From NCBI GenBank assembly GCA_017416325.1, contig JAFQCV010000003.1, positions 1 to 40,064 on the forward strand: a stretch of DNA of 40,064 nucleotides. Direction: 5' to 3'. This document shows positions 26,058 to 35,158 of the stretch, in pieces (positions within the stretch are counted from its first letter, which is position 1; every line of letters starts with the position of its first letter). This stretch comes from Oscillospiraceae bacterium (GTDB taxonomy: Bacteria > Bacillota > Clostridia > Oscillospirales > Oscillospiraceae). The position numbers were made by a program, and so were the translations under genes. The notes under the pieces are model-generated. The model did not search any database. It was not told the DNA's origin and was given only the letters and a program-made list of their open reading frames with translations.

Positions 26058-26918
26058 ATGGAAATTATCCTTGCAATCGGCATCCTTGGCGGCCTGGGAC
26101 TGATCTTCGGATTGGTTTTGGCAGCTGCCTCCAAGGTGTTTTATGTGGAAACAGATCCCCGGCTGGAAAAGCTGAACGCCTGTCTTCCCGGCGCTAACTG
26201 CGGCGGCTGCGGCTATGCCGGCTGCGGCGGCTACGCCGAAGCGGTGCTGGAAGGCAGAGCGGAAATCGGCAAATGCGCCTCCGGGGGCAACGAATGTGCC
26301 CAGGCTATGGCAGCCATCATGGGTAAGGAAGCGGGGGAGGTCACCCGGAAAGTGGCGCTGGTGCGCTGCTCCGGCGAAAAGACCTATGATAGCGACGGCA
26401 ATCTGGTGGCGGGTGCCCGGATGAAAGCCAACTATGAAGGCTTCCACGACTGCCTGGCAGCCAGTAAGGTAGGCGGCCGGGGTCCTCTGGCTTGTAAATA
26501 CGGCTGCCTGGGCTTTGGAAACTGCGTCAAAGCCTGCAAATACGATGCCATTAGGATCGTGAACGGTGTGGCCCGGGTCAATGAGAAGCGGTGTGTAGGC
26601 TGTATGAGCTGCGCTGCCGCCTGTCCCCGGGATCTGATCGTGGCGGTAGAACCCAACCGCAATGTGGTCATCGCCTGTAACTCCATGGCTAAGGGCGCGG
26701 TCACCACCCGGGGCTGCACCGTGGGCTGTATCGGCTGCGGCTTGTGTAAGAAGATTTGCCCCCATGGCGCCATTACCGTGGAGAACAATCTGGCGGTGAT
26801 CGATTACAGCAAGTGCGATAACTGCGGCCTGTGCGCTACGGTTTGCCCCAAGCGGCTGATCAAGGATTCCAATGTGGAAAACCTGGCAGATCCCCATCCG
26901 CTGACAAAATCGCTGTAA
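26058..26918 (+). CDS. rnfB: Rnf complex subunit RnfB
   Basis: A 286-residue ferredoxin-accepting subunit with an N-terminal membrane helix, the Fe-S region ANCGGCGYAGCGG (about residues 47-59), and several 4Fe-4S motifs: CLGFGNCVKACKYDA, CVGCMSCAAACP, CIGCGLCKKICP and CDNCGLCATVCP. It takes electrons from reduced ferredoxin and passes them into the membrane part. It is the last gene of the complex and is followed by a strong terminator. All six subunits look intact, so the complex should be functional. Confidence 0.97.
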   Translation: MEIILAIGILGGLGLIFGLVLAAASKVFYVETDPRLEKLNACLPGANCGGCGYAGCGGYAEAVLEGRAEIGKCASGGNECAQAMAAIMGKEAGEVTRKVALVRCSGEKTYDSDGNLVAGARMKANYEGFHDCLAASKVGGRGPLACKYGCLGFGNCVKACKYDAIRIVNGVARVNEKRCVGCMSCAAACPRDLIVAVEPNRNVVIACNSMAKGAVTTRGCTVGCIGCGLCKKICPHGAITVENNLAVIDYSKCDNCGLCATVCPKRLIKDSNVENLADPHPLTKSL

Positions 26919-26952
26919 TAACAAAGCCTGAGGAATACAAAAGTATACAAAT

Positions 26953-26992
26953 AAAACCGGCAGTGGTGTTTTAAACGCCACTGCCGGTTTTC
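26953..26992. terminator. Terminator after rnfB
   Basis: AAAACCGGCAGTGG / CCACTGCCGGTTTT hairpin with T-rich tail. It marks the left border of the A+T-rich island. Confidence 0.9.
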
Positions 26993-27100
26993 GTTTGACG
27001 GGGAATATAGTCGCATTTCCTGACATAAGGAATTTTTGTATGCCAAATGTCTGAGGAATAAATTCTCCATATGGTTGTATAGCGCTGTTCAACTGATACA

Positions 27101-27130
27101 TTGAAAAAGCGTGTAAAAATAGTATATAAT
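27101..27130 (+). promoter_or_regulatory. Promoter of the pyrimidine island
   Basis: TTGAAA (27101-27106), 18-base spacer, TATAAT (27125-27130). The ribosome site AAGGAG lies at 27146-27151, nine bases before ATG 27161. Confidence 0.72.
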
Positions 27131-27160
27131 TGTGGTAAACAGCGGAAGGAGAGAGCGTCA

Positions 27161-27988
27161 ATGTTAATTGGTGATAAAATACGAAGGCTGCGGAAAAATA
27201 AAAATATAACTCAGATTCAACTGGCAGAAGCCTTATCTGTTTCCTCTCAATCGGTGAGCAAATGGGAGAATCATATATCTGCTCCTGATATTGCTGTCTT
27301 GCCTGTGATTGCACGATATTTTGGTATCACAATGGACGAGTTGTTTGGCTACCGGCTTGATGCGCTTAATTACAAGGAGCGTTTCATTCGCTTTATGGTG
27401 AACAACGGAATGTTGCGGTTTGGCGAGTTTATGTTGAAAAGCGGTCGTCTTTCGCCGTATCTTATCCACAGCGGCTACAACCTTACGGGAAGTCAAATTT
27501 CTAAGCTCGGCGAGTTTTATGCCGAATGTATCAGAGAGCACAGCATTGAGGCAAACTGCCTTATTGGAATTGACAACAGAGAAATCCCGCTTGTAATTGC
27601 AACAAGCATGACTTTATTCAATCGGTATGGCATAGATTCAGCCCATTGTGTTGATTATGATATTGAAAATACTGCTTTTTCTTCTCATGAAATAACGCTT
27701 ATTACCGATGCGTTTACATCGGGGGCGTCCCTCTGTTCGGCATTAGAGCAAATTAAAAACAGAATGAACAAGTACCCATCCGATGTGGTAGTTTGCGTTG
27801 ACAGAATGGAAAGCTCCGATCATTCTTCTCTTTCTGCGAAACACGAAATTGAAAACCGGTATGGAGTGAAAATCCATCCTATCGTAAATGTGGATGATAT
27901 AATCAAGGCGATTGAAAGTGGCGTAATTACGGCAGAGGAGCATTTTGAGAAGCTAAAAGATTATATGAAACGTTATAAGGGGAAATGA
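27161..27988 (+). CDS. XRE helix-turn-helix protein fused to a degenerate orotate phosphoribosyltransferase domain
   Basis: A 275-residue two-domain protein. Residues 4-60 are an XRE/Cro-type DNA-binding domain (ITQIQLAEALSVSSQSVSKW). Residues 70-255 align with PyrE: FIRFMVNNGMLRFGEFMLKSG (written over 20 residues, 75-95) and SPYLI correspond to PyrE's FIEF...LKFGEFTLKSGRKSPY. The catalytic parts are eroded. The GPAYKGIP motif reads GIDNREIP, the flexible loop RKEAKDHGEGG is replaced by a short stretch without Lys (163-175), and the PRPP loop DDVITAGTA reads TDAFTSGAS. It is therefore more likely a sensor than an enzyme, comparable in logic to Bacillus PurR, a DNA-binding PRTase relative that senses PRPP. 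It overlaps pyrF by ATGA. Confidence 0.85.
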   Translation: MLIGDKIRRLRKNKNITQIQLAEALSVSSQSVSKWENHISAPDIAVLPVIARYFGITMDELFGYRLDALNYKERFIRFMVNNGMLRFGEFMLKSGRLSPYLIHSGYNLTGSQISKLGEFYAECIREHSIEANCLIGIDNREIPLVIATSMTLFNRYGIDSAHCVDYDIENTAFSSHEITLITDAFTSGASLCSALEQIKNRMNKYPSDVVVCVDRMESSDHSSLSAKHEIENRYGVKIHPIVNVDDIIKAIESGVITAEEHFEKLKDYMKRYKGK

Positions 27989-27990
27989 CA

Positions 27991-28947
27991 ATGAATGTTG
28001 TTGATAAACTGATTGAAAATACGATTAGAACAAAGAATCCGTCCGTTATTGGCCTCGATCCGGATATTGGGAAAATTCCTGCGTGTTACAAGAATCATGC
28101 CAAAAGCAACCATCCTTTTGAGGCAGTAGCAAACGTAATATATGCGTTTAATCGTGATGTGATTGATACGGTTGCCGATCTTATTCCTGGGGTCAAGCCT
28201 CAAATGGCATTCTACGAAAAGTATGGTTCGTATGGTGTTGCCGCTTTTGAGAAAACGGTTGCATATGCAAAATCCAAGGGACTGATCGTGATAGAGGACG
28301 CAAAGCGGAACGACATTGGCAATACAGCCAGGGCGTATGCAGACGGACATCTCGGATGCGTCGAGTTGCTGGACGGTTCTTGCGCCCCCTCCTTTGATGC
28401 TGACTTCTTAACTGTTACGCCCTTTTTGGGAAGTGAAAGCCTGCATCCGTTTATTGATGTGTGCGTAAAGAATAGCAAAGGCATCTTTGTCTTAGTAAAG
28501 ACATCAAACACAAGCTCCGGTGAAATCCAAGATGTTGTTACTTCAGATAAAATGACGATCAGTCAAAGCGTTGCAAAATATGTATCTGAGCAGGGCGATA
28601 CTTTCACAGGCGAACACGGGTATTCCGCTATTGGCGCTGTAGTTGGCGCGACCTACCCGGAGGAAGCTGTTTCGCTTAGAAAGTTAATGCCAAAGAGCTA
28701 TTTCCTTGTTCCCGGTTATGGCGCACAAGGCGGCGGTGCAAAAGACATTACACCTTGTTTCAATGAAGATGGTCTTGGTGCAGTTGTCAATTCGTCAAGA
28801 GGTATCTTGTACACACATATGAACAACGAAGAAAGAGAACAGTGTACCCGCCAGGAATACTTGTTAAGTGTAAAAAATGCCGCAATGCAAATGCGGGAGG
28901 ATATTTATTCTGCTTTAAAAAGAGAATACCGGAAAATGATTTATTAA
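27991..28947 (+). CDS. pyrF: Orotidine 5'-phosphate decarboxylase, type 2
   Basis: A protein of about 318 residues that decarboxylates OMP to UMP, the last step of de novo UMP synthesis. The active-site D-x-K-x-x-D is present (DAKRNDIG, about Asp103, Lys105, Asp108), together with GAVVGATYPEEA and VPGYGAQGGGA, typical of the longer type-2 enzymes. It should be active. ATG 27985 overlaps the preceding stop codon. ATG 27991 has better spacing from AAGGGG (27977-27982) and is chosen. The pairing with a PyrE-like regulator is notable. Whether the genome has another pyrF in a complete pyr operon is not visible here. Codon use is A+T-rich compared with the flanks. Confidence 0.93.
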   Translation: MNVVDKLIENTIRTKNPSVIGLDPDIGKIPACYKNHAKSNHPFEAVANVIYAFNRDVIDTVADLIPGVKPQMAFYEKYGSYGVAAFEKTVAYAKSKGLIVIEDAKRNDIGNTARAYADGHLGCVELLDGSCAPSFDADFLTVTPFLGSESLHPFIDVCVKNSKGIFVLVKTSNTSSGEIQDVVTSDKMTISQSVAKYVSEQGDTFTGEHGYSAIGAVVGATYPEEAVSLRKLMPKSYFLVPGYGAQGGGAKDITPCFNEDGLGAVVNSSRGILYTHMNNEEREQCTRQEYLLSVKNAAMQMREDIYSALKREYRKMIY

Positions 28948-29012
28948 TTACACATCGAGTATGGCGATAGATTGTTTTTTGTACGAAAATAGAGGCCAGG
29001 TGAGTGCTTAGC

Positions 29013-29846
29013 TTGAAAACATTATATGTATCAGATTTAGATGGAACTTTATTGAGAAGTAACGAGAGAACTTCTGAATACACCAATAATGTCATTAATA
29101 GCCTGACAGACAGAGGAGTGCTCTTTTCCTATGCAACCGCACGTTCGTTGATTACGGCAAAGAAAGCAACTAAGGGGTTAAATGCCAAAATCCCGCTAAT
29201 CGTTTATAATGGCGCATTCGTGATGGATAATGTTACGGAAAAGATACTGCTTGCAAATTATTTTGATGCGTCTGTTCATACGTTGCTGGATGAATTGTTT
29301 GCGAACAAGATATATCCCATTGTTTATGCTCATATAAACGGAAAAGAGAAGTTTTCATTTGTACCGGAGTTGTGCACGGTTGGTATGCAAAAGTTTATTG
29401 GGAGCAGAAACGGTGATGTTCGTACCAATGCTGTGAACACACCAGACGAATTAACAATAGGAGAGCTGTTTTATATTACTTGTATAGATGAACCGCACAA
29501 ATTGAAGCCAATATACGAAGCATATAAAGATATATATCATTGTGTTTATCACACTGACATATATACAAACGATCAGTGGCTCGAAATTATGCCTTTGGCA
29601 GCATCTAAGTCAAACGCACTCAAACAATTGCAAGAATTGCTTGAGTGTGAGAAGTTGGTTGTATTCGGTGATGGTAAAAATGATGTGGATATGTTTGAAC
29701 TGGCCGATGAAAGCTACGCCGTTGAAAATGCACATGAAGAATTGAAAAAATATGCTACGGCAATGATTCCGTCCAATAATGATGATGGTGTTGCAAAGTG
29801 GCTGGACCATATGCTTGTGCAGTCAGGTTCATCCGAAATGGCTTGA
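29013..29846 (+). CDS. Cof-type HAD-IIB family phosphatase (first of two)
   Basis: A protein of about 277 residues with HAD motif I VSDLDGTLLRS near the N-terminus, the Cof-type cap in the middle, a conserved Lys (KSNAL), and motif IV FGDGKNDVDMF. Such enzymes dephosphorylate sugar phosphates, nucleotides or cofactor phosphates; the substrate is open. The start is taken as TTG 29013, nine bases behind AGGTGA. GTG 29004 is directly at the ribosome site and less likely. It lies 65 bases behind pyrF in the same direction. By context a nucleotide or ribose phosphate is plausible, but that is inference only. Confidence 0.85.
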   Translation: MKTLYVSDLDGTLLRSNERTSEYTNNVINSLTDRGVLFSYATARSLITAKKATKGLNAKIPLIVYNGAFVMDNVTEKILLANYFDASVHTLLDELFANKIYPIVYAHINGKEKFSFVPELCTVGMQKFIGSRNGDVRTNAVNTPDELTIGELFYITCIDEPHKLKPIYEAYKDIYHCVYHTDIYTNDQWLEIMPLAASKSNALKQLQELLECEKLVVFGDGKNDVDMFELADESYAVENAHEELKKYATAMIPSNNDDGVAKWLDHMLVQSGSSEMA

Positions 29847-29912
29847 TTTCAATAGAACCTCAGGATATAATTCTGTTAGATAAGAAGTTAGCATGTGAAG
29901 CGGGTGATCAGA

Positions 29913-30686
29913 ATGAAAAATGTTCCAAAGATTAAGACCGTCGTAGTGGATTTGGACAGGACCTTATTACATACGGACAAAACCTTGTCTCCTTATACCC
30001 TGGAGGTTCTGAAAGCCTGCAAGGAAAAGGGATTGCGGCTCCTGATAGCCACGGCAAGACCCCAACGCACGGCTGAGCAATTCTATGAGAGAATTGGCGC
30101 CCACGGGATGGTTGTTTCCAACGGCGCAAGGGTGATCTGCGGAAACAAGCAAACTGAGTATGGAATCTGCCGAGAGAGTGCGGAGCGTTTATTGCGTTAC
30201 TTGAACCGCTATCCCGATCTGCGCATTACTCTTGAAACGGGAGATATTGCCTATTCCAACAAACCAATTGCGGATTATGAAACAATTCTTTCCGACAATT
30301 TGGTGGGAATTGCCAAAGCGGAAGGTGTATTAAAAATACTGGTGCAGCTTGATAGAAAAGACACATTAGCGGTCGTGGAGAAAGGTTTAACAGATGATCT
30401 GTATTACACGGTTGCTCATGGGTACTTAATGCAGATCATGAACAAATCTGCAACCAAGTGGAACGGCATCAAAGCAATGCTGGAAATTTGCAGCTGCTCC
30501 CCGAAAGAAACTGCTTACTTTGGGGATGACCATGATGATTTGGAGCCTATCAAACTGTGTGGAATGGGAATTGCTGTAGCCAATGGTATTGACGAAGTGA
30601 AAACTGCCGCAGATTGTATTGCCGAAAGCAATGATGAAGACGGCGTTGCAAGATTTATTGAACAAGTGTTATTAAGGAAACTGTGA
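29913..30686 (+). CDS. Cof-type HAD family phosphatase (second of two)
   Basis: A protein of about 257 residues of the same superfamily as the preceding gene but clearly divergent. Motif I is VVDLDRTLLHT (DxD kept, the usual Gly replaced by Arg), there is VVSNGARV in the cap linker, and motif IV is FGDDHDDLEPI. The catalytic Asp pair is present, so it is probably a phosphatase. ATG 29913 with GGGTGA just upstream is preferred over GTG 29895. It is 66 bases behind the first HAD gene and 17 bases ahead of the kinase gene. The substrate is unknown. Confidence 0.85.
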   Translation: MKNVPKIKTVVVDLDRTLLHTDKTLSPYTLEVLKACKEKGLRLLIATARPQRTAEQFYERIGAHGMVVSNGARVICGNKQTEYGICRESAERLLRYLNRYPDLRITLETGDIAYSNKPIADYETILSDNLVGIAKAEGVLKILVQLDRKDTLAVVEKGLTDDLYYTVAHGYLMQIMNKSATKWNGIKAMLEICSCSPKETAYFGDDHDDLEPIKLCGMGIAVANGIDEVKTAADCIAESNDEDGVARFIEQVLLRKL

Positions 30687-30703
30687 TTTGTGGAGAGTTG
30701 TCC

Positions 30704-31243
30704 ATGGGAATGGGAATAGTTGTCTGTGGGTTGAATGGGTGTGGAAAAAGCACACTTGGTAAAGCGCTAGCACGGCAGATGGGATTGCATTTTATTGATG
30801 TTGAGGATTTGTATTTTACGCGAGAAAGTGTAGAGGCGCCCTATAAAAGTCCTCGCTCCCGAGCAGAAGTTGAAGACCTACTCTTGCGTGAAGTGGCTGG
30901 GCATGAAGACTTTGTCTTTGCTGCGGTGAAGGGTGATTACGGAGAAAAAGTTCAAAAATGCTATCAGTATATAGTTGTTATTGAGGCCCCCAAAAAGATA
31001 CGCGTGCAGCGTGTACGAAATCGTTCGCTGCAAAAATTTGGGAGCAGGATGTTAGAAGGTGGAGACCTGTATGAGGCGGAAGAGCAGTTTTTTAAACTGG
31101 TAGAATCAAGAACAGAAGCATACTATGAAGATTGGTTGCGGACACTAAAATGTCCGATAATCAGAGTGGATGGTACCAATACAATTGAAGAAAATGTTTA
31201 TTACATTATTCAACAAATTAGTATGCAACAGTCAACCTTTTGA
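30704..31243 (+). CDS. Small P-loop kinase (AAA/shikimate- or nucleotide-kinase-like)
   Basis: A protein of about 179 residues with a Walker A motif right at the N-terminus (GLNGCGKST, residues 9-17), LHFIDVEDLYF as the acceptor-side strand found in NMP/shikimate-type kinases, and an RVRNRSLQKFG lid-like basic region. It resembles small ATP-binding proteins in Clostridia that are usually left without a function. By context it could phosphorylate a nucleoside or nucleotide, but nothing in the sequence fixes the substrate. GGAGAG precedes ATG 30704. A longer GTG start at 30683 would overlap the HAD stop. Confidence 0.8.
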   Translation: MGMGIVVCGLNGCGKSTLGKALARQMGLHFIDVEDLYFTRESVEAPYKSPRSRAEVEDLLLREVAGHEDFVFAAVKGDYGEKVQKCYQYIVVIEAPKKIRVQRVRNRSLQKFGSRMLEGGDLYEAEEQFFKLVESRTEAYYEDWLRTLKCPIIRVDGTNTIEENVYYIIQQISMQQSTF

Positions 31244-31320
31244 CGGGGCATAATGGTACAATTCTACTTAAAGTTGCATAAATGCAAACTCTAGCTGGTG
31301 GAAAGAAAGCATAACCTGTG

Positions 31321-31337
31321 GTATATTGACAATATAC
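31321..31337. promoter_or_regulatory. Candidate operator upstream of the XRE-dCMP deaminase gene
   Basis: GTATATTGACAATATAC is a perfect inverted repeat (7-base arms, 3-base centre) overlapping the presumed -10 region, 25 bases before ATG 31363. It is a natural candidate for autoregulation by the XRE domain encoded directly downstream. Part of it (GTATAT) is also seen at the -10 of the first island promoter. Confidence 0.5.
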
Positions 31338-31362
31338 ATTGTGCGAAAGCGAGGCATCGCAA

Positions 31363-32052
31363 ATGAGTTTTGCAGAAAACTTAAAGAGCATTAGAAAAAA
31401 ACAAAATATCACCCAAGAACAACTGGCAGATATGCTGTCAGTTTCAAGGCAGGCGATTTCCAAGTGGGAATCCGGACTGGTATATCCGGAAACAGAAACA
31501 TTGCTGACAATTTCCAGGGAACTAAATGTTTCGCTGGATTATCTGTTTGAAGACAGGCATCACATAGTCAGACCTAAAAGCACAGAGCGTACATCCAAGA
31601 TTGATACGTATTTGAACTGCGCGGAAGTATTTGCCTATCGAAGCACCTGCATAAAGCGCAAATACGGTGCCGTCATTGTAAAGGATGATGCGGTGATTTC
31701 AACCGGGTACAACGGCTCGCCCCGTGGAATGGAGAATTGCTGCGATTTGGGAACGTGTCCCCGAATCGAAAGAAATATGCACCAAGGTGAGGGGTACGGT
31801 ATTTGCAGGGCCATCCATGCAGAGGCGAATGCACTGCTTAACTGTTCCCGCCAACAAACCATTGGTGCGGATTTGTATTTGGCAGGCATCAATCCAAAGG
31901 ATAATTCTATCCACAGAGCCAATCCCTGTCCGATGTGTGCAAGACTTATAATTCAAGCAGGTATCAACAATGTCTATATGCGCGTGGGTGAAGGAGTAGA
32001 AAACTATATAGTGCTTCCTGCCAAGGATCTTGTTTGGGTGCAGGATGCGTAA
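31363..32052 (+). CDS. XRE helix-turn-helix protein fused to a dCMP deaminase domain
   Basis: A 229-residue two-domain protein. Residues 4-62 form an XRE DNA-binding domain (ITQEQLADMLSVSRQAISKW). Residues 80-225 form a cytidine/deoxycytidylate deaminase domain like ComEB: RSTCIKRKYGAVIVKDD, TGYNGSPRG, IHAEANAL (zinc His152 and catalytic Glu154) and PCPMC (zinc Cys189 and Cys192). All zinc and catalytic residues are present, so it should be active on dCMP or a related nucleotide, giving dUMP. Further Cys residues (126, 127, 132, 148) could hold a structural zinc. ATG 31363 is chosen, with GAGG eight bases before it. It ends the island and mirrors the XRE-PyrE fusion at the beginning. Confidence 0.88.
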   Translation: MSFAENLKSIRKKQNITQEQLADMLSVSRQAISKWESGLVYPETETLLTISRELNVSLDYLFEDRHHIVRPKSTERTSKIDTYLNCAEVFAYRSTCIKRKYGAVIVKDDAVISTGYNGSPRGMENCCDLGTCPRIERNMHQGEGYGICRAIHAEANALLNCSRQQTIGADLYLAGINPKDNSIHRANPCPMCARLIIQAGINNVYMRVGEGVENYIVLPAKDLVWVQDA

Positions 32053-32066
32053 ATTTAGCATAATTT

Positions 32067-32095
32067 TAGGCGCTGTTGCTATGCAACAGCGCCTA
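32067..32095. terminator. Hairpin terminator at the right end of the island
   Basis: TAGGCGCTGTTGC-TAT-GCAACAGCGCCTA, perfect 13-base arms, lies between the convergent deaminase and DegV genes. The following plus-strand sequence is only moderately T-rich; on the minus strand the run is AAAATTA. It is probably used by both genes. Confidence 0.75.
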
Positions 32096-32106
32096 ACTTG
32101 TTTGTT

Positions 32107-32970
32107 TTATCGATGTTCGCCCAGGAAGAACAGAGCCAGCGTACCGGGACCGGAATGAGAACCGATCACCGCGCCGGTGTAGCCGATGAAGACCTCTTTT
32201 ACACCGTGCTTGGCTTTCACAATGGCTGCCAGCTGCTCAGCATCCTGGATGCAGTCGCCGTGGCAGATGAACACGGTGTCATTTTCGCCGGGCAGCGCCA
32301 GCTGATCCATTTTGCTGGCCAGAGCCTCAATGGCTGCCTTCCGGCCCCGAACCTTGGATCTGCTGATAAGATGCCCTTCGTCATCCACATGGAGTACCGG
32401 CTTGATGTTCAGCATGGTACCGACCAAGGCGGTGGCTGCGCTGACACGGCCGCCCCGCTTCAGATACATCAGATCGTCTACCGTAAACCAATGGCACAGC
32501 CGGAAGCGGTTTTCTGTGACCCAGTCCGCCAGAGCGTCCAGCTCCAGCCCCTCCTGCTGCTTGCGGCAGGCATACCAAACCAGCAGTCCCTGACCCAAGG
32601 AGGCAGCCAGGGTGTCCACCACCCGGATCTTCCGCTGCGGATACTTTTCCGACAGCTCATTGGCGGCGATCACAGCGGATTGGTAGGTGGTACTCAGACC
32701 CGAAGAGAAAGTCAGCACCAGGGCGTCCAAGCCTTCTGCCAGTACAGATTCTATGACATCGGACCATTGCTGGGGATTGATGGCAGAGGTGGTGGCGGCT
32801 TCCCCGGACCGCAGGCCGGCATACATTTCCTGAATACCGTCGTCTACGGAATCGGGATTGGTGACACCTCGGAAAGTCACATACAGCGGCGAAACAGCCA
32901 GCCCCAAGGAGTCTGCCATGGACTTGGGCAAATCGCTGCCGGAATCGGTGATGATTTTATAGTTGGACAT
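32107..32970 (-). CDS. DegV family fatty-acid-binding protein
   Basis: A 287-residue protein with KIITDSGSDLP at the N-terminus, FRG..NPDSVDDGIQEMY, a TFSSGLSTTYQSA loop and a C-terminal GPGTLALFFLGE. DegV proteins bind a fatty acid; FakB members present it to the kinase FakA for incorporation into phospholipids. No fakA is seen here, so this may be a FakB-type carrier or another lipid-binding member. I choose ATG 32970 with GGGAG nine bases upstream. The longer frame up to 33123 adds non-conserved residues. Confidence 0.92.
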   Translation of the reverse strand: MSNYKIITDSGSDLPKSMADSLGLAVSPLYVTFRGVTNPDSVDDGIQEMYAGLRSGEAATTSAINPQQWSDVIESVLAEGLDALVLTFSSGLSTTYQSAVIAANELSEKYPQRKIRVVDTLAASLGQGLLVWYACRKQQEGLELDALADWVTENRFRLCHWFTVDDLMYLKRGGRVSAATALVGTMLNIKPVLHVDDEGHLISRSKVRGRKAAIEALASKMDQLALPGENDTVFICHGDCIQDAEQLAAIVKAKHGVKEVFIGYTGAVIGSHSGPGTLALFFLGEHR

Positions 32971-33109
32971 AAGATACACTCCCGCATCAAAGGATTTTCC
33001 GGCTTGAACGCCGGAATCATCATATAGAAATATCATACTGCATATGGGACGCAAAGTCACCCTTTTGGTCGGAGAAGTCCAAAATCTTGCTCTCCATAAG
33101 GTAGAATAC

Positions 33110-33136
33110 CCCACTCTACTCATGGTAGAGTGGGGC
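33110..33136. repeat. Hairpin between the DegV gene and the small Cys-rich gene
   Basis: CCCCACTCTAC / GTAGAGTGGGG stem with a short loop. There is no clear T run on either strand, so termination would be weak. It may be a processing or partial termination signal behind the small gene. Confidence 0.45.
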
Positions 33137-33313: not shown

Positions 33314-35158
33314 TTATGCTTCCTCCAAAATACACATGCCGCCGGCATCCAGAGTTACCCCATCTTCGGCAACGGACAGCAGGTTGTGTCCAAAGAGAAG
33401 CTTGCCGCCGGGCAGCTCCCAGGGCGCAAGGCTTCGGTTGACGCAGACGCGAAGGGTTTGCCCCGGGTACTGACGGGTGAAGCCCAGCTTGCCGTCCTGT
33501 GACTGGAAAAAGCGGATATCGCCCAGCCGCAGAGCGGGATGTTCCGCTCTTAACTTACCCAAAGCTCTAAAATGGGTCAAGAGTGTCTGGTTTTCCCTGC
33601 CCCAAGGGTAGGTGCGGCGGTTAAAGGGATCTTTGTGCCCCTCCATGCCAGCTTCATCCGCGTAGTACAGACTGGGCGCGCCGGGGAGGGTGTACTGGAT
33701 AAAGGAAGCCATCAGCAATTTCTCCACGGCAGCGCTGTATTGCTGGGGAGAGAGATGGCGGTGCGCCTGCTGCTCCCGGCTGCCCTCAAACCCGTCCACC
33801 AAGGCTGTGAGGATCCGTACACTGTCGTGGGTGCTCAAAAGATTCATGTTGCACAGCAGGACCTGAGACGGATAATTTTCCGCAATGGTCATAACGGTAT
33901 CCGCAAGCCTCCGGCCATCATCGCAGTCCCGCAGGTAAGCCAGGATGGCGCTCCGGAAGGGGTAGTTCATCACGCTGTCCAGCTGTCCATCTACAAAATA
34001 CCGGCGGCGAACGCCGTAGGCAATTTTGTTGGAAGCATCCTCCCAGACTTCCCCCATCAAAAGAGCGTCGGGGCGCAGCTGGCGGAGGCGCTTTTTCAGC
34101 AGCGACAAAAATTCATTGGGAAGCTCATCTGCTACATCCAACCGGAAACCGTCGCAACCGGCGTTCAGCCAGTGGGCGATGACGCTGTTTTCTCCGGTGA
34201 TGATATAGTCTATAAAGGATGGGTCTAGCTTGTTCGCCGTAGGTAAGGTGTCAAATCCCCACCAGGAATTGTAGTGATCCGGCCAGTTTTGGAACTGATA
34301 CCAGGTGTAGTAAGGGGACGTTCTTGTGCAGTAAGCGCCGTTTCCACCGAAGGTCCTCTGCTTGTCAAAATAGAGGCTGTTAGAGCCGGTGTGGGAATAC
34401 ACGCCATCCAAAATCACCCGGATACCCCGTTTGTGGGCCTCCCGGCACAGCTGGGAAAAATCCTCCAGCGTACCCAGCATGGGGTCGGGGGTTTTATAGT
34501 CAGCCGTATCGTAGCGGTGGGAGGAGAAGCTTTTGGAAATGGGATTTAAATACAGGATAGTTGTACCCAGGGAAGCGATATAGTCCAGTTTTTCGGTAAT
34601 GCCCCGGAAGTTGCCCCCAAAGAAATCGTTGTTCAGCACCTGCCCATCGGGAGTGGGCTGCCACTGAACCTCCTCGTCCCAATTCTCATGGATGGTGTAG
34701 GGGGTGAGCTTATCCCTTAGATCGCAGTCACCGGATTTACAGAACCGGTCCGGGAAAATTTGATAGATCACAGCGCCCTGGGCCCATTGAGGAACGGTAA
34801 AGTCCGCCGGGATACAGCTGACCTGCCAAAGATCCCCGTCTTCCATATTGGTGTCGTTGCCGTATTTAAACAGGCGGAAGGAATTGCCCGGGGTGTGGAT
34901 GCGGAAATAGTAGTAATAAAGACCCGGCTCTGTCAGAGAGAAGCTGCCCCGGAAGATCTCATAAGCTCCCTCCTGGGCGTGGAGCGTCAGGGGGACAGAC
35001 ATGGGGTTGCTTCCGTCAAACAGGGAGATCAGACACTCTACCTTTTGGGAACGGACGGTTGCCGGAATATGAATATGCAAAGTACATTCTTCCCCCGGCA
35101 ACAATGTGCCGAAGGGGGTTTTAAATTCAGACTTCTTGCTGTCAAAAAGAATACGCAT
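33314..35158 (-). CDS. GH13 alpha-amylase family glycosidase (pullulanase/maltodextrin-glucosidase-like, cytoplasmic)
   Basis: A 614-residue glycoside hydrolase with an N-terminal beta-sandwich (about 1-125, starch-binding/CBM-like), a TIM barrel with DGVYSHTGSNS, DGFRLDVADELP (nucleophile Asp), MGEVWEDAS (acid Glu), LLSTHDSVRIL (third Asp), and a C-terminal sheet domain. There is no signal peptide, so it acts on internal glycogen or imported maltodextrin. It lies behind glgC-glgD-glgA, separated from glgA by a 320-base gap with a repeat, and probably completes a glycogen synthesis and breakdown cluster. The precise bond specificity (alpha-1,4 or alpha-1,6) is not readable. Confidence 0.92.
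   Translation of the reverse strand: MRILFDSKKSEFKTPFGTLLPGEECTLHIHIPATVRSQKVECLISLFDGSNPMSVPLTLHAQEGAYEIFRGSFSLTEPGLYYYYFRIHTPGNSFRLFKYGNDTNMEDGDLWQVSCIPADFTVPQWAQGAVIYQIFPDRFCKSGDCDLRDKLTPYTIHENWDEEVQWQPTPDGQVLNNDFFGGNFRGITEKLDYIASLGTTILYLNPISKSFSSHRYDTADYKTPDPMLGTLEDFSQLCREAHKRGIRVILDGVYSHTGSNSLYFDKQRTFGGNGAYCTRTSPYYTWYQFQNWPDHYNSWWGFDTLPTANKLDPSFIDYIITGENSVIAHWLNAGCDGFRLDVADELPNEFLSLLKKRLRQLRPDALLMGEVWEDASNKIAYGVRRRYFVDGQLDSVMNYPFRSAILAYLRDCDDGRRLADTVMTIAENYPSQVLLCNMNLLSTHDSVRILTALVDGFEGSREQQAHRHLSPQQYSAAVEKLLMASFIQYTLPGAPSLYYADEAGMEGHKDPFNRRTYPWGRENQTLLTHFRALGKLRAEHPALRLGDIRFFQSQDGKLGFTRQYPGQTLRVCVNRSLAPWELPGGKLLFGHNLLSVAEDGVTLDAGGMCILEEA

What the first reader, a model, noticed from the sequence alone, without database searches (positions are those of the whole stretch)
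27101..32095. Six-gene A+T-rich pyrimidine island with XRE-enzyme fusions at both ends
Seen in sequence: between the rnfB terminator and a convergent hairpin lie six co-directional genes with visibly higher A+T content and different codon use than both flanks. The order is XRE-PyrE-like, PyrF, HAD, HAD, P-loop kinase, XRE-dCMP deaminase. Known: PyrE and PyrF make UMP, dCMP deaminase makes dUMP, and HAD and P-loop proteins often act on nucleotides. Inference: the set may sense and adjust pyrimidine nucleotide pools. This could be metabolic control acquired by transfer, or a defence module, since nucleotide-depleting deaminases and phosphatases are known antiphage strategies. I know of no described system with this composition.
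Basis: partly seen in the sequence, partly recalled or inferred. Interest (0 to 1): 0.82.

Follow-up and report, generated by a model that had tools for sequence, protein, structure and literature searches.

The report
Dead pyrimidine enzyme turned gene switch
A gut bacterium has picked up a small gene set in which a pyrimidine-making enzyme, stripped of its catalytic loop and joined to a DNA-binding domain, probably controls a working copy of the next enzyme in the pathway; the other four genes of the set look like loosely linked passengers.

Summary
The six A+T-rich genes are there, in the stated order, and look foreign to this genus. They are not one conserved system. What recurs is the first pair, an XRE–PyrE fusion followed by PyrF: 33 further complete fusions among the 80 loci kept, 27 with PyrF directly downstream. 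The island's last two genes are beside none of the 33. The PyrE part looks dead: all 34 distinct fusions lack the catalytic loop, yet keep R156 and most of the phosphate loop; 71 of 73 alignable non-fused rows keep the loop, the other two being partial fusions. PyrF looks active. Of 36 carrier genomes, 34 hold another PyrE over the family cut-off. A 36-base element overlapping the −35 box precedes the gene in most copies; all 15 near-exact matches in 36 genomes lie at the fusion operon. Best reading: a mobile, self-controlled OMP-decarboxylase operon whose regulator is a pseudo-OPRT sensing a pyrimidine nucleotide (OMP is my guess), built like PurR and BzdR. XRE–dCMP deaminase is a second, rarer fusion. 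Defence is unsupported. Ligand, DNA binding and structure are untested.

The parts
27068..27103 (+). conserved 36-base element (putative operator) whose last three bases begin the -35 box
   Evidence: placed by an EM motif search in the window and 32 relatives, 27.3 bits against 9.0-10.3 in 12 shuffled sets; mean 0.88 bit per column against 0.16 upstream in 29 rows. By hand count the window copy departs at 4 positions from the pattern, and it was not found there
27101..27130 (+). promoter-like TTGAAA-18-TATAAT
   Evidence: 11 of 12 consensus positions, best of the region; a -10-like hexamer at 15-18 bases in 26 of 29 rows, one mismatch allowed
27161..27988 (+). XRE HTH + pseudo-orotate phosphoribosyltransferase (275 aa), putative regulator
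   Evidence: HTH_3 4.6e-14; TIGR00336 75.0 bits against cut-off 106.8; catalytic loop absent
27991..28947 (+). PyrF, OMP decarboxylase type 2, motifs intact
   Evidence: TIGR02127 270.5 bits; catalytic DxKxxD stretch present
29013..29846 (+). HADa, Cof-type HAD phosphatase; passenger or occasional partner
   Evidence: TIGR00099 137.1 bits, cut-off 137 (scanned from 29004); beside the fusion in L084, 1 of 33
29895..30686 (+). HADb, Cof-like HAD phosphatase; probable passenger
   Evidence: PF08282 2.2e-47; distant HADs (27-31%) follow the pair in L069 and L072
30683..31243 (+). P-loop nucleotide-kinase-like protein; probable passenger
   Evidence: AAA_18 1.6e-10; beside the fusion in 0 of 33 loci
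31321..31337 (.). perfect 17-base palindrome GTATATTGACAATATAC upstream of the XRE-deaminase
   Evidence: not found within 3 mismatches in L168, the stretch with the other fusion, so unconfirmed
31363..32052 (+). XRE HTH + dCMP deaminase with HAE and PCPMC motifs
   Evidence: PF00383 8.6e-18 and HTH_3 9.2e-18 (scanned from 31339); one other full fusion seen, in G688
32066..32096 (+). terminator-like hairpin closing the island
   Evidence: 14-pair stem plus T-rich tail

Best explanation
The functional unit is the first two genes. XRE-PyrE is a transcription regulator whose sensor is an orotate phosphoribosyltransferase (OPRT) domain that has lost catalysis. It binds the 36-base element at its own promoter and controls a two-gene operon that makes an extra, active OMP decarboxylase. 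Most likely ligand (inference): OMP, the substrate of the PyrF it controls, because the 5'-phosphate loop and the orotate-contacting arginine are kept while the pyrophosphate-binding loop is gone (the roles of these residues are recalled). When OMP or orotate builds up, binding would change occupancy of the element, which overlaps the -35 box, and raise PyrF. The pair moves among Clostridia as a cassette. In the window it came with four further genes that do not belong to it as a rule. Shown by sequence: degeneracy, single clade, conserved element, linkage to PyrF, presence in genomes with another PyrE. Inferred: DNA binding, ligand, direction of regulation, mobility.
For: K103 and H105 deleted in 36 of 36 fusion rows (34 distinct), against K100/K103/H105 present in 71 of 73 alignable non-fused rows, the two exceptions being partial fusions. 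Purifying selection on the degenerate domain, dN/dS 0.051, 0.030 and 0.029 in 3 pairs. Another PyrE over the cut-off in 34 of 36 carrier genomes. PyrF directly downstream in 27 of 33, and in both of two fusions found later that were not in the first set, both loopless too. Distances of the two proteins go together, r = 0.90 over 26 loci, 0 of 2000 permutations as high. Element; of 36 carrier genomes 18 show it at the fusion operon with at most 3 mismatches, and all 15 matches with at most 1 mismatch are among these. One clade, SH-aLRT 100. Precedents: PurR (passages of PMC8789054) and BzdR (abstract of PMC3602430).
Against: 6 of 33 fusions lack PyrF, so PyrF is not the only target. 18 of 36 carrier genomes, the window's own included, show no match to the element pattern at the fusion; the pattern was drawn from these same loci, and 4 rows out of register were dropped before the column count. 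One fusion (L098, in G720) itself just passes the PyrE cut-off, 107.7 against 106.8. K73 is still lysine in 5 rows and D124 still acidic in 3; K26 is kept in 19 of 36 rows and is Q in 10, so the ligand may differ among subfamilies or not be OMP. Relatedness inflates the motif, permutation and clade statistics; dS is near saturation in 2 of the 3 pairs. The element was not found upstream of L223.
Confidence: 0.62

Rival explanations
1. The XRE-PyrE/PyrF pair is a back-up UMP-making route: the fusion is still an active OPRT with an added DNA-binding domain.
For: The gene pair matches consecutive steps; clear OPRT homology (E 2.3e-26 to 3n2l); strong purifying selection; one relative (L098) just passes the PyrE cut-off.
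Against: Catalytic loop lost in all 34 distinct fusions, K73 changed in 31 of 36 rows and the acid at 124 lost in 33 of 36; 34 of 36 carriers have another PyrE; the window protein is under the PyrE cut-off.
Confidence: 0.08
2. All six genes form one pyrimidine-pool control module.
For: Shared low G+C, one direction, one terminator-like site at the end; HADs follow the pair or the fusion in L069, L072, L084 and L098; HADa relatives lie beside canonical pyrE in L132, L139, L143, L144; a 57% kinase homologue lies downstream of a canonical pyrE in G440.
Against: Kinase and XRE-deaminase beside 0 of 33 fusions. Kinase homologues in 12 of 36 carrier genomes, own included, none of the 11 others on the fusion's contig; HADa homologues in 13 of 36, own included, 1 of the 12 others beside the fusion. 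HADb was not searched genome-wide.
Confidence: 0.12
3. The pair is an antimetabolite-bypass cassette: the dead OPRT senses an OMP-like inhibitor and induces a spare, less sensitive OMP decarboxylase.
For: Apparently mobile, self-controlled, duplicates an enzyme that the host has already.
Against: No inhibitor, producer or resistance link was seen; the type of the host PyrF was not tested.
Confidence: 0.1
4. Antiphage defence by nucleotide depletion.
For: Weak matches to defence models: deaminase part to dCTPase (77.4 bits), kinase to VakA (39.7 bits), XRE parts to RmrA and others. One of 94 neighbours in relatives is a type II restriction enzyme (8.5e-153).
Against: NF041025 61.5 bits against cut-off 400; the closest relatives of the deaminase part are stand-alone proteins at 72-84%; no PADLOC model matches more than 2 of 94 neighbours at 1e-15; no close relative of the fusion in viral contigs.
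Confidence: 0.04

Closest known systems
PurR of Bacillus and other Firmicutes
   Same: DNA-binding domain joined to a phosphoribosyltransferase-fold domain without enzymatic activity that binds effectors (passages of PMC8789054).
   Different: PurR has its own N-terminal domain (PF09182, named in the paper) and a purine-type PRT domain; here XRE and OPRT. PurR binds at many operons; here the element was recognised only at the own operon.
BzdR/BoxR regulators (XRE + shikimate-kinase-like domain)
   Same: DNA-binding domain plus a domain descended from an enzyme whose activity was lost (abstract of PMC3602430).
   Different: Sensor is OPRT, not shikimate kinase; NF006015 scores 16.7 bits against 204.
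GfcR of haloarchaea (encoded by 'pyrE1' in Haloarcula hispanica)
   Same: A protein annotated pyrE that acts as a transcription regulator (passages of PMC11519228).
   Different: Archaeal, acts on sugar degradation; NF002620 (OPRT-like proteins) scores 19.2 bits against 115. That NF002620 covers GfcR is recalled, not tested.
Canonical clostridial PyrE
   Same: The OPRT domains fall in one starred clade (97) with Oscillospiraceae/Ruminococcus-type PyrEs.
   Different: Loop and most catalytic residues lost, XRE domain added.

Membership tests
active orotate phosphoribosyltransferase (PyrE) | TIGR00336 cut-off 106.8 bits | tested here: not met
   75.0 bits; among relatives one fusion, L098, reaches 107.7
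active orotate phosphoribosyltransferase (PyrE) | catalytic loop K100, K103, H105 (E. coli numbering; role recalled) | tested here: not met
   gap at K103 and H105 in 36 of 36 rows
OMP decarboxylase type 2 (PyrF) | TIGR02127 cut-off 110.6 bits and DxKxxD motif | tested here: met
   270.5 bits; EDAKRNDIGNTA
Firmicute PurR | N-terminal PF09182 domain | tested here: not met
   N-terminus is HTH_3; PF09182 not among the families listed at E <= 0.01
Firmicute PurR | catalytically dead PRT effector domain on a DNA-binding domain | tested here: met
   by sequence only
BzdR/BoxR | XRE plus shikimate-kinase-like domain (NF006015) | tested here: not met
   16.7 bits against 204 for gene 1, 16.2 for gene 6
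OPRT-like regulators of the NF002620 model | cut-off 115 bits | tested here: not met
   19.2 bits
antiphage dCTP deaminase (NF041025) | cut-off 400 bits; N-terminal P-loop domain in the same chain (recalled) | tested here: not met
   61.5 bits; N-terminus is XRE
dCMP deaminase | zinc motifs HAE and PCxxC (recalled) | tested here: met
   IHAEANALL and PCPMC seen in the translation; PF00383 8.6e-18
ligand-regulated repressor or activator | effector-dependent DNA binding | not testable with these tools
   needs binding assays

The most novel reading that the evidence does not exclude
A family of XRE-type regulators, not found described in the searches, uses a pseudo-OPRT to sense OMP itself, so that a mobile cassette measures the substrate of the enzyme it carries and adds OMP decarboxylase only when flux through the host pathway stalls: a portable metabolic relief valve or antimetabolite bypass. 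The XRE-dCMP deaminase beside it would be an early, still catalytic stage of the same enzyme-to-regulator route.
Probability: 0.25. Interest if true: 0.78.

Novelty: new variant of a known kind. Interest (0 to 1): 0.58.

Why it matters
It would add to PurR, BzdR and GfcR a further case of an enzyme-like domain turned into a gene switch. Here parent enzymes, degenerate descendants and the enzyme under control are all at hand in one bacterial class, so the steps from enzyme to sensor can be tested. It would also show a mobile operon that carries its own metabolite sensor for a core pathway.

Tried and rejected
Six-gene system: rejected as a conserved unit. Defence module: not supported. Phage carriage: the best match in the phage collection (H61, MT835471) has the intact loop and its DNA is 90% identical over 689 bases to a bacterial locus (L107), so I take it for an ordinary bacterial PyrE; the other 64 phage records were not looked at. 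RNA switch upstream: no Rfam family at gathering score in 26900-32200. Plasmid carriage: of 405 plasmid records with a match none covers 80% of the XRE-PyrE protein. A regulon beyond the own operon: 19 further element matches with 2-3 mismatches in 36 genomes, 3 of them with 2, against 28 for the reversed-pattern control, so background. Palindrome upstream of the deaminase: not found at the other fusion. dN/dS for the XRE-deaminase pair: dS could not be computed. Not followed: one plasmid record (H34, Bacillus halotolerans, 30.5%) covers 83% of the XRE-deaminase query, HTH part included, so looser XRE-deaminase fusions may exist.

Not in print, as far as searched: the listings show no paper on an XRE-OPRT regulator; only listings were seen. 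One search (GfcR with OPRT) found no paper.

Rows dropped or limits: one search kept 80 of 114 relatives; one search's match list is cut. 94 of 115 candidate neighbour proteins went into A2; of its Pfam result only the first 25 of 134 families are shown. 4 of 77 non-fused rows could not be aligned at the active site. 23 non-fused rows and two partial fusions of the 77 went into the tree. L079 and L081 were left out of the motif search because their promoter seems to lie upstream of another gene; from the 33 motif rows I dropped 4 by eye (L072, L087, L097, L098) before the column count. Stretches after rnfB: 16 of 30 genomes with a match.
Full report
Observation. The island is real. Six co-directional genes lie between rnfB and a convergent hairpin, with G+C of 0.39-0.45 in a window that is otherwise 0.50-0.61. 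The window lies in a 2.0 Mb draft genome, 86% complete. That genome has another pyrF at C83:12500-13162 and, next to it, another pyrE at C83:13204-13830 that is over the PyrE cut-off. Genes before them on C83 match, in order, genes of G688 that I read by eye as pyrC, pyrK and pyrD; pyrB and the carbamoyl-phosphate genes were not looked for.

Foreign origin. RnfB was searched in 41 genomes of the genus (30 with a match). I took the stretch downstream of rnfB from 16 of these. None holds any of the six genes (tblastn, at least 60 bits), and in 6 of 16 (L197, L199, L201, L203, L204, L206) the gene matching the window's amylase (33314-35158) lies 188-726 bases from the rnfB match. Several of the other stretches end at a contig end. 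The complete fusion was seen in no other genome among the listed matches of the family sample (300 genomes, list cut), in 7 of 394 of the order sample, own included, and in 1 of 398, the own one, of the phylum sample.

Relatives. One scan of 84,980 species genomes found 114 relatives and kept 80; 33 of these (L066-L098) hold the complete XRE-PyrE fusion, 47-93% identical to the window's, and three more (L099-L101) are partial. Record titles name Lachnospiraceae, Oscillospiraceae, other Clostridia and one Bacillales bin; 19 of 33 titles name a ruminant. PyrF lies directly downstream in 27 of 33 (L078 and L081 cut by contig ends); L074, L082, L083, L084, L097 and L098 lack it. HADa (53%) follows the fusion in L084; other HADs follow the pair or the fusion in L069, L072 and L098. 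The kinase and the XRE-deaminase are beside none of the 33. Other neighbours mostly differ from locus to locus, though close pairs such as L077/L078, L079/L081 and L085/L088 share them, as expected of a cassette. In 25 loci the pair is on average 3.5 points lower in G+C than its flanks (Wilcoxon p 0.002), yet follows them (r 0.77), so some copies are probably old in their hosts.

The PyrE part looks dead. E. coli PyrE was used for numbering. In all 36 fusion rows (34 distinct; the window is in three times) the positions of K103 and H105 are deleted, and no printed row has lysine at K100; K73 is R in 24, K in 5, Q in 5; D124 is T or K in 32 and E in 3. Kept: G28 36, D125 34, T128 32, G130 36, R156 36; K26 only 19. 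Of 77 non-fused rows, 73 can be aligned there and 71 keep K100, K103 and H105; the other two (L100, L101) are partial fusions. That the loop and K73 bind pyrophosphate and R156 the orotate is recalled knowledge of OPRT structures. The window protein scores 75.0 bits against the PyrE model, under the 106.8 cut-off; one relative, L098, reaches 107.7. 34 of 36 carrier genomes have a PyrE over the cut-off that is not the fusion; the exceptions are G703 and G717, and G717 shows PyrE pieces on two contigs. The domain is under purifying selection: dN/dS 0.051, 0.030 and 0.029 against L066, L067 and L068, with dS 0.6, 1.7 and 2.0. All 36 fusion rows of the tree (the window, 33 and two partial ones) are one side of a branch against 23 canonical rows, SH-aLRT 100, inside a clade (97) with Oscillospiraceae/Ruminococcus-type PyrEs; this was a quick tree with 21 weak forks.

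PyrF looks alive. The catalytic DxKxxD stretch is kept in 36 of 37 rows; the exception, L003, is a weak PyrF-family match elsewhere in the window's genome, not a cassette gene. The distances of PyrF run parallel to those of the regulator (26 loci, r 0.90, 0 of 2000 permutations as high), so the two seem to travel together; host relatedness was not taken out.

The promoter element. Upstream regions of the window and 32 relatives gave a 36-base motif of 27.3 bits; 12 shuffled sets gave 9.0-10.3. In 29 of these 33 rows, kept by eye in register, the element averages 0.88 bit per column and the 45 columns before it 0.16. Its end is the -35 box, followed by a -10-like hexamer at 15-18 bases in 26 of 29. 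A pattern drawn from the closer copies was sought with up to 3 mismatches in 36 carrier genomes: 37 matches in 25 genomes, 18 of them at the fusion operon. All 15 with 0-1 mismatch are at that operon, 13 just upstream of the fusion and 2 (G701, G703) about 1.4 kb further up, where in L079 an APH-like kinase gene precedes the fusion. The 19 others are no more than the 28 matches of the reversed control. The other 18 fusion operons, the window's included (4 mismatches by hand count), were not found by this pattern. The regulator therefore looks local; this part is partly circular, as the pattern came from the same loci.

A small independent check. The order sample held six further full-length matches; four proved identical to loci already used. 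The two new ones (L223, L224) both lack the loop and both have PyrF directly downstream; L224 has the element within 4 mismatches, L223 does not.

XRE-dCMP deaminase. Both zinc motifs are present in the translation. A second full fusion (79%) exists in G688, on another contig than that genome's XRE-PyrE; none other was seen in 391 genomes of the class sample or the 36 carrier genomes, though one plasmid record shows a weak, long match (H34). Stand-alone relatives at 72-84% exist in G539, G664, G720 and G712. It is the only match in the window's genome at E 1e-15. I read it as a recent fusion, perhaps a regulator that is still an enzyme.

Comparison with known systems. It works like PurR (dead PRT domain as effector domain; passages of PMC8789054), is built like BzdR (DNA-binding domain plus retired enzyme; abstract of PMC3602430), and resembles haloarchaeal GfcR in being a PyrE-like regulator (passages of PMC11519228). 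It is a member of none of them by the tests listed.

Verdict. What I cannot show is the ligand, DNA binding, or whether the regulator represses or activates.

Noticed in passing
L132:7076-7870, L139:7066-7860, L143:1781-2575, L144:7072-7866: A HADa relative (53-55%) lies divergently beside canonical pyrE in four loci, suggesting a link of this HAD family to orotate/OMP metabolism.
   Followed up: partly
L218:7944-9767: In G440 a canonical pyrE is followed by a gene that I read by eye as a GNAT acetyltransferase and by a 57% homologue of the island's P-loop kinase.
   Followed up: partly
window 31321-31337: Perfect 17-base palindrome GTATATTGACAATATAC just upstream of the XRE-deaminase start; absent at the other known fusion.
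   Followed up: partly
L168:3619-12486: In G688 the XRE-deaminase lies about 4-8 kb from pyr genes and a gene that looks by eye like dihydrofolate reductase.
   Followed up: no
L079:6940-7968: An APH-like phosphotransferase gene precedes the fusion, and the element lies about 1.4 kb upstream of the OPRT part, apparently before that gene; the same gene order in L081.
   Followed up: partly
G712 contigs C7 and C25; G708 contig C41: Two PyrE-like frames of fusion size, below the PyrE cut-off, in one genome; the second copies were not examined.
   Followed up: no
window 32107-33123: A DegV gene (named by eye) lies between the island and the amylase gene but was not found in the 16 relative stretches, so it may have moved in too, though its G+C is ordinary.
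   Followed up: no
L077:9806-10393: A protein matching YfbR-like 5'-deoxynucleotidase follows the pair in L077, another nucleotide enzyme as optional neighbour.
   Followed up: no
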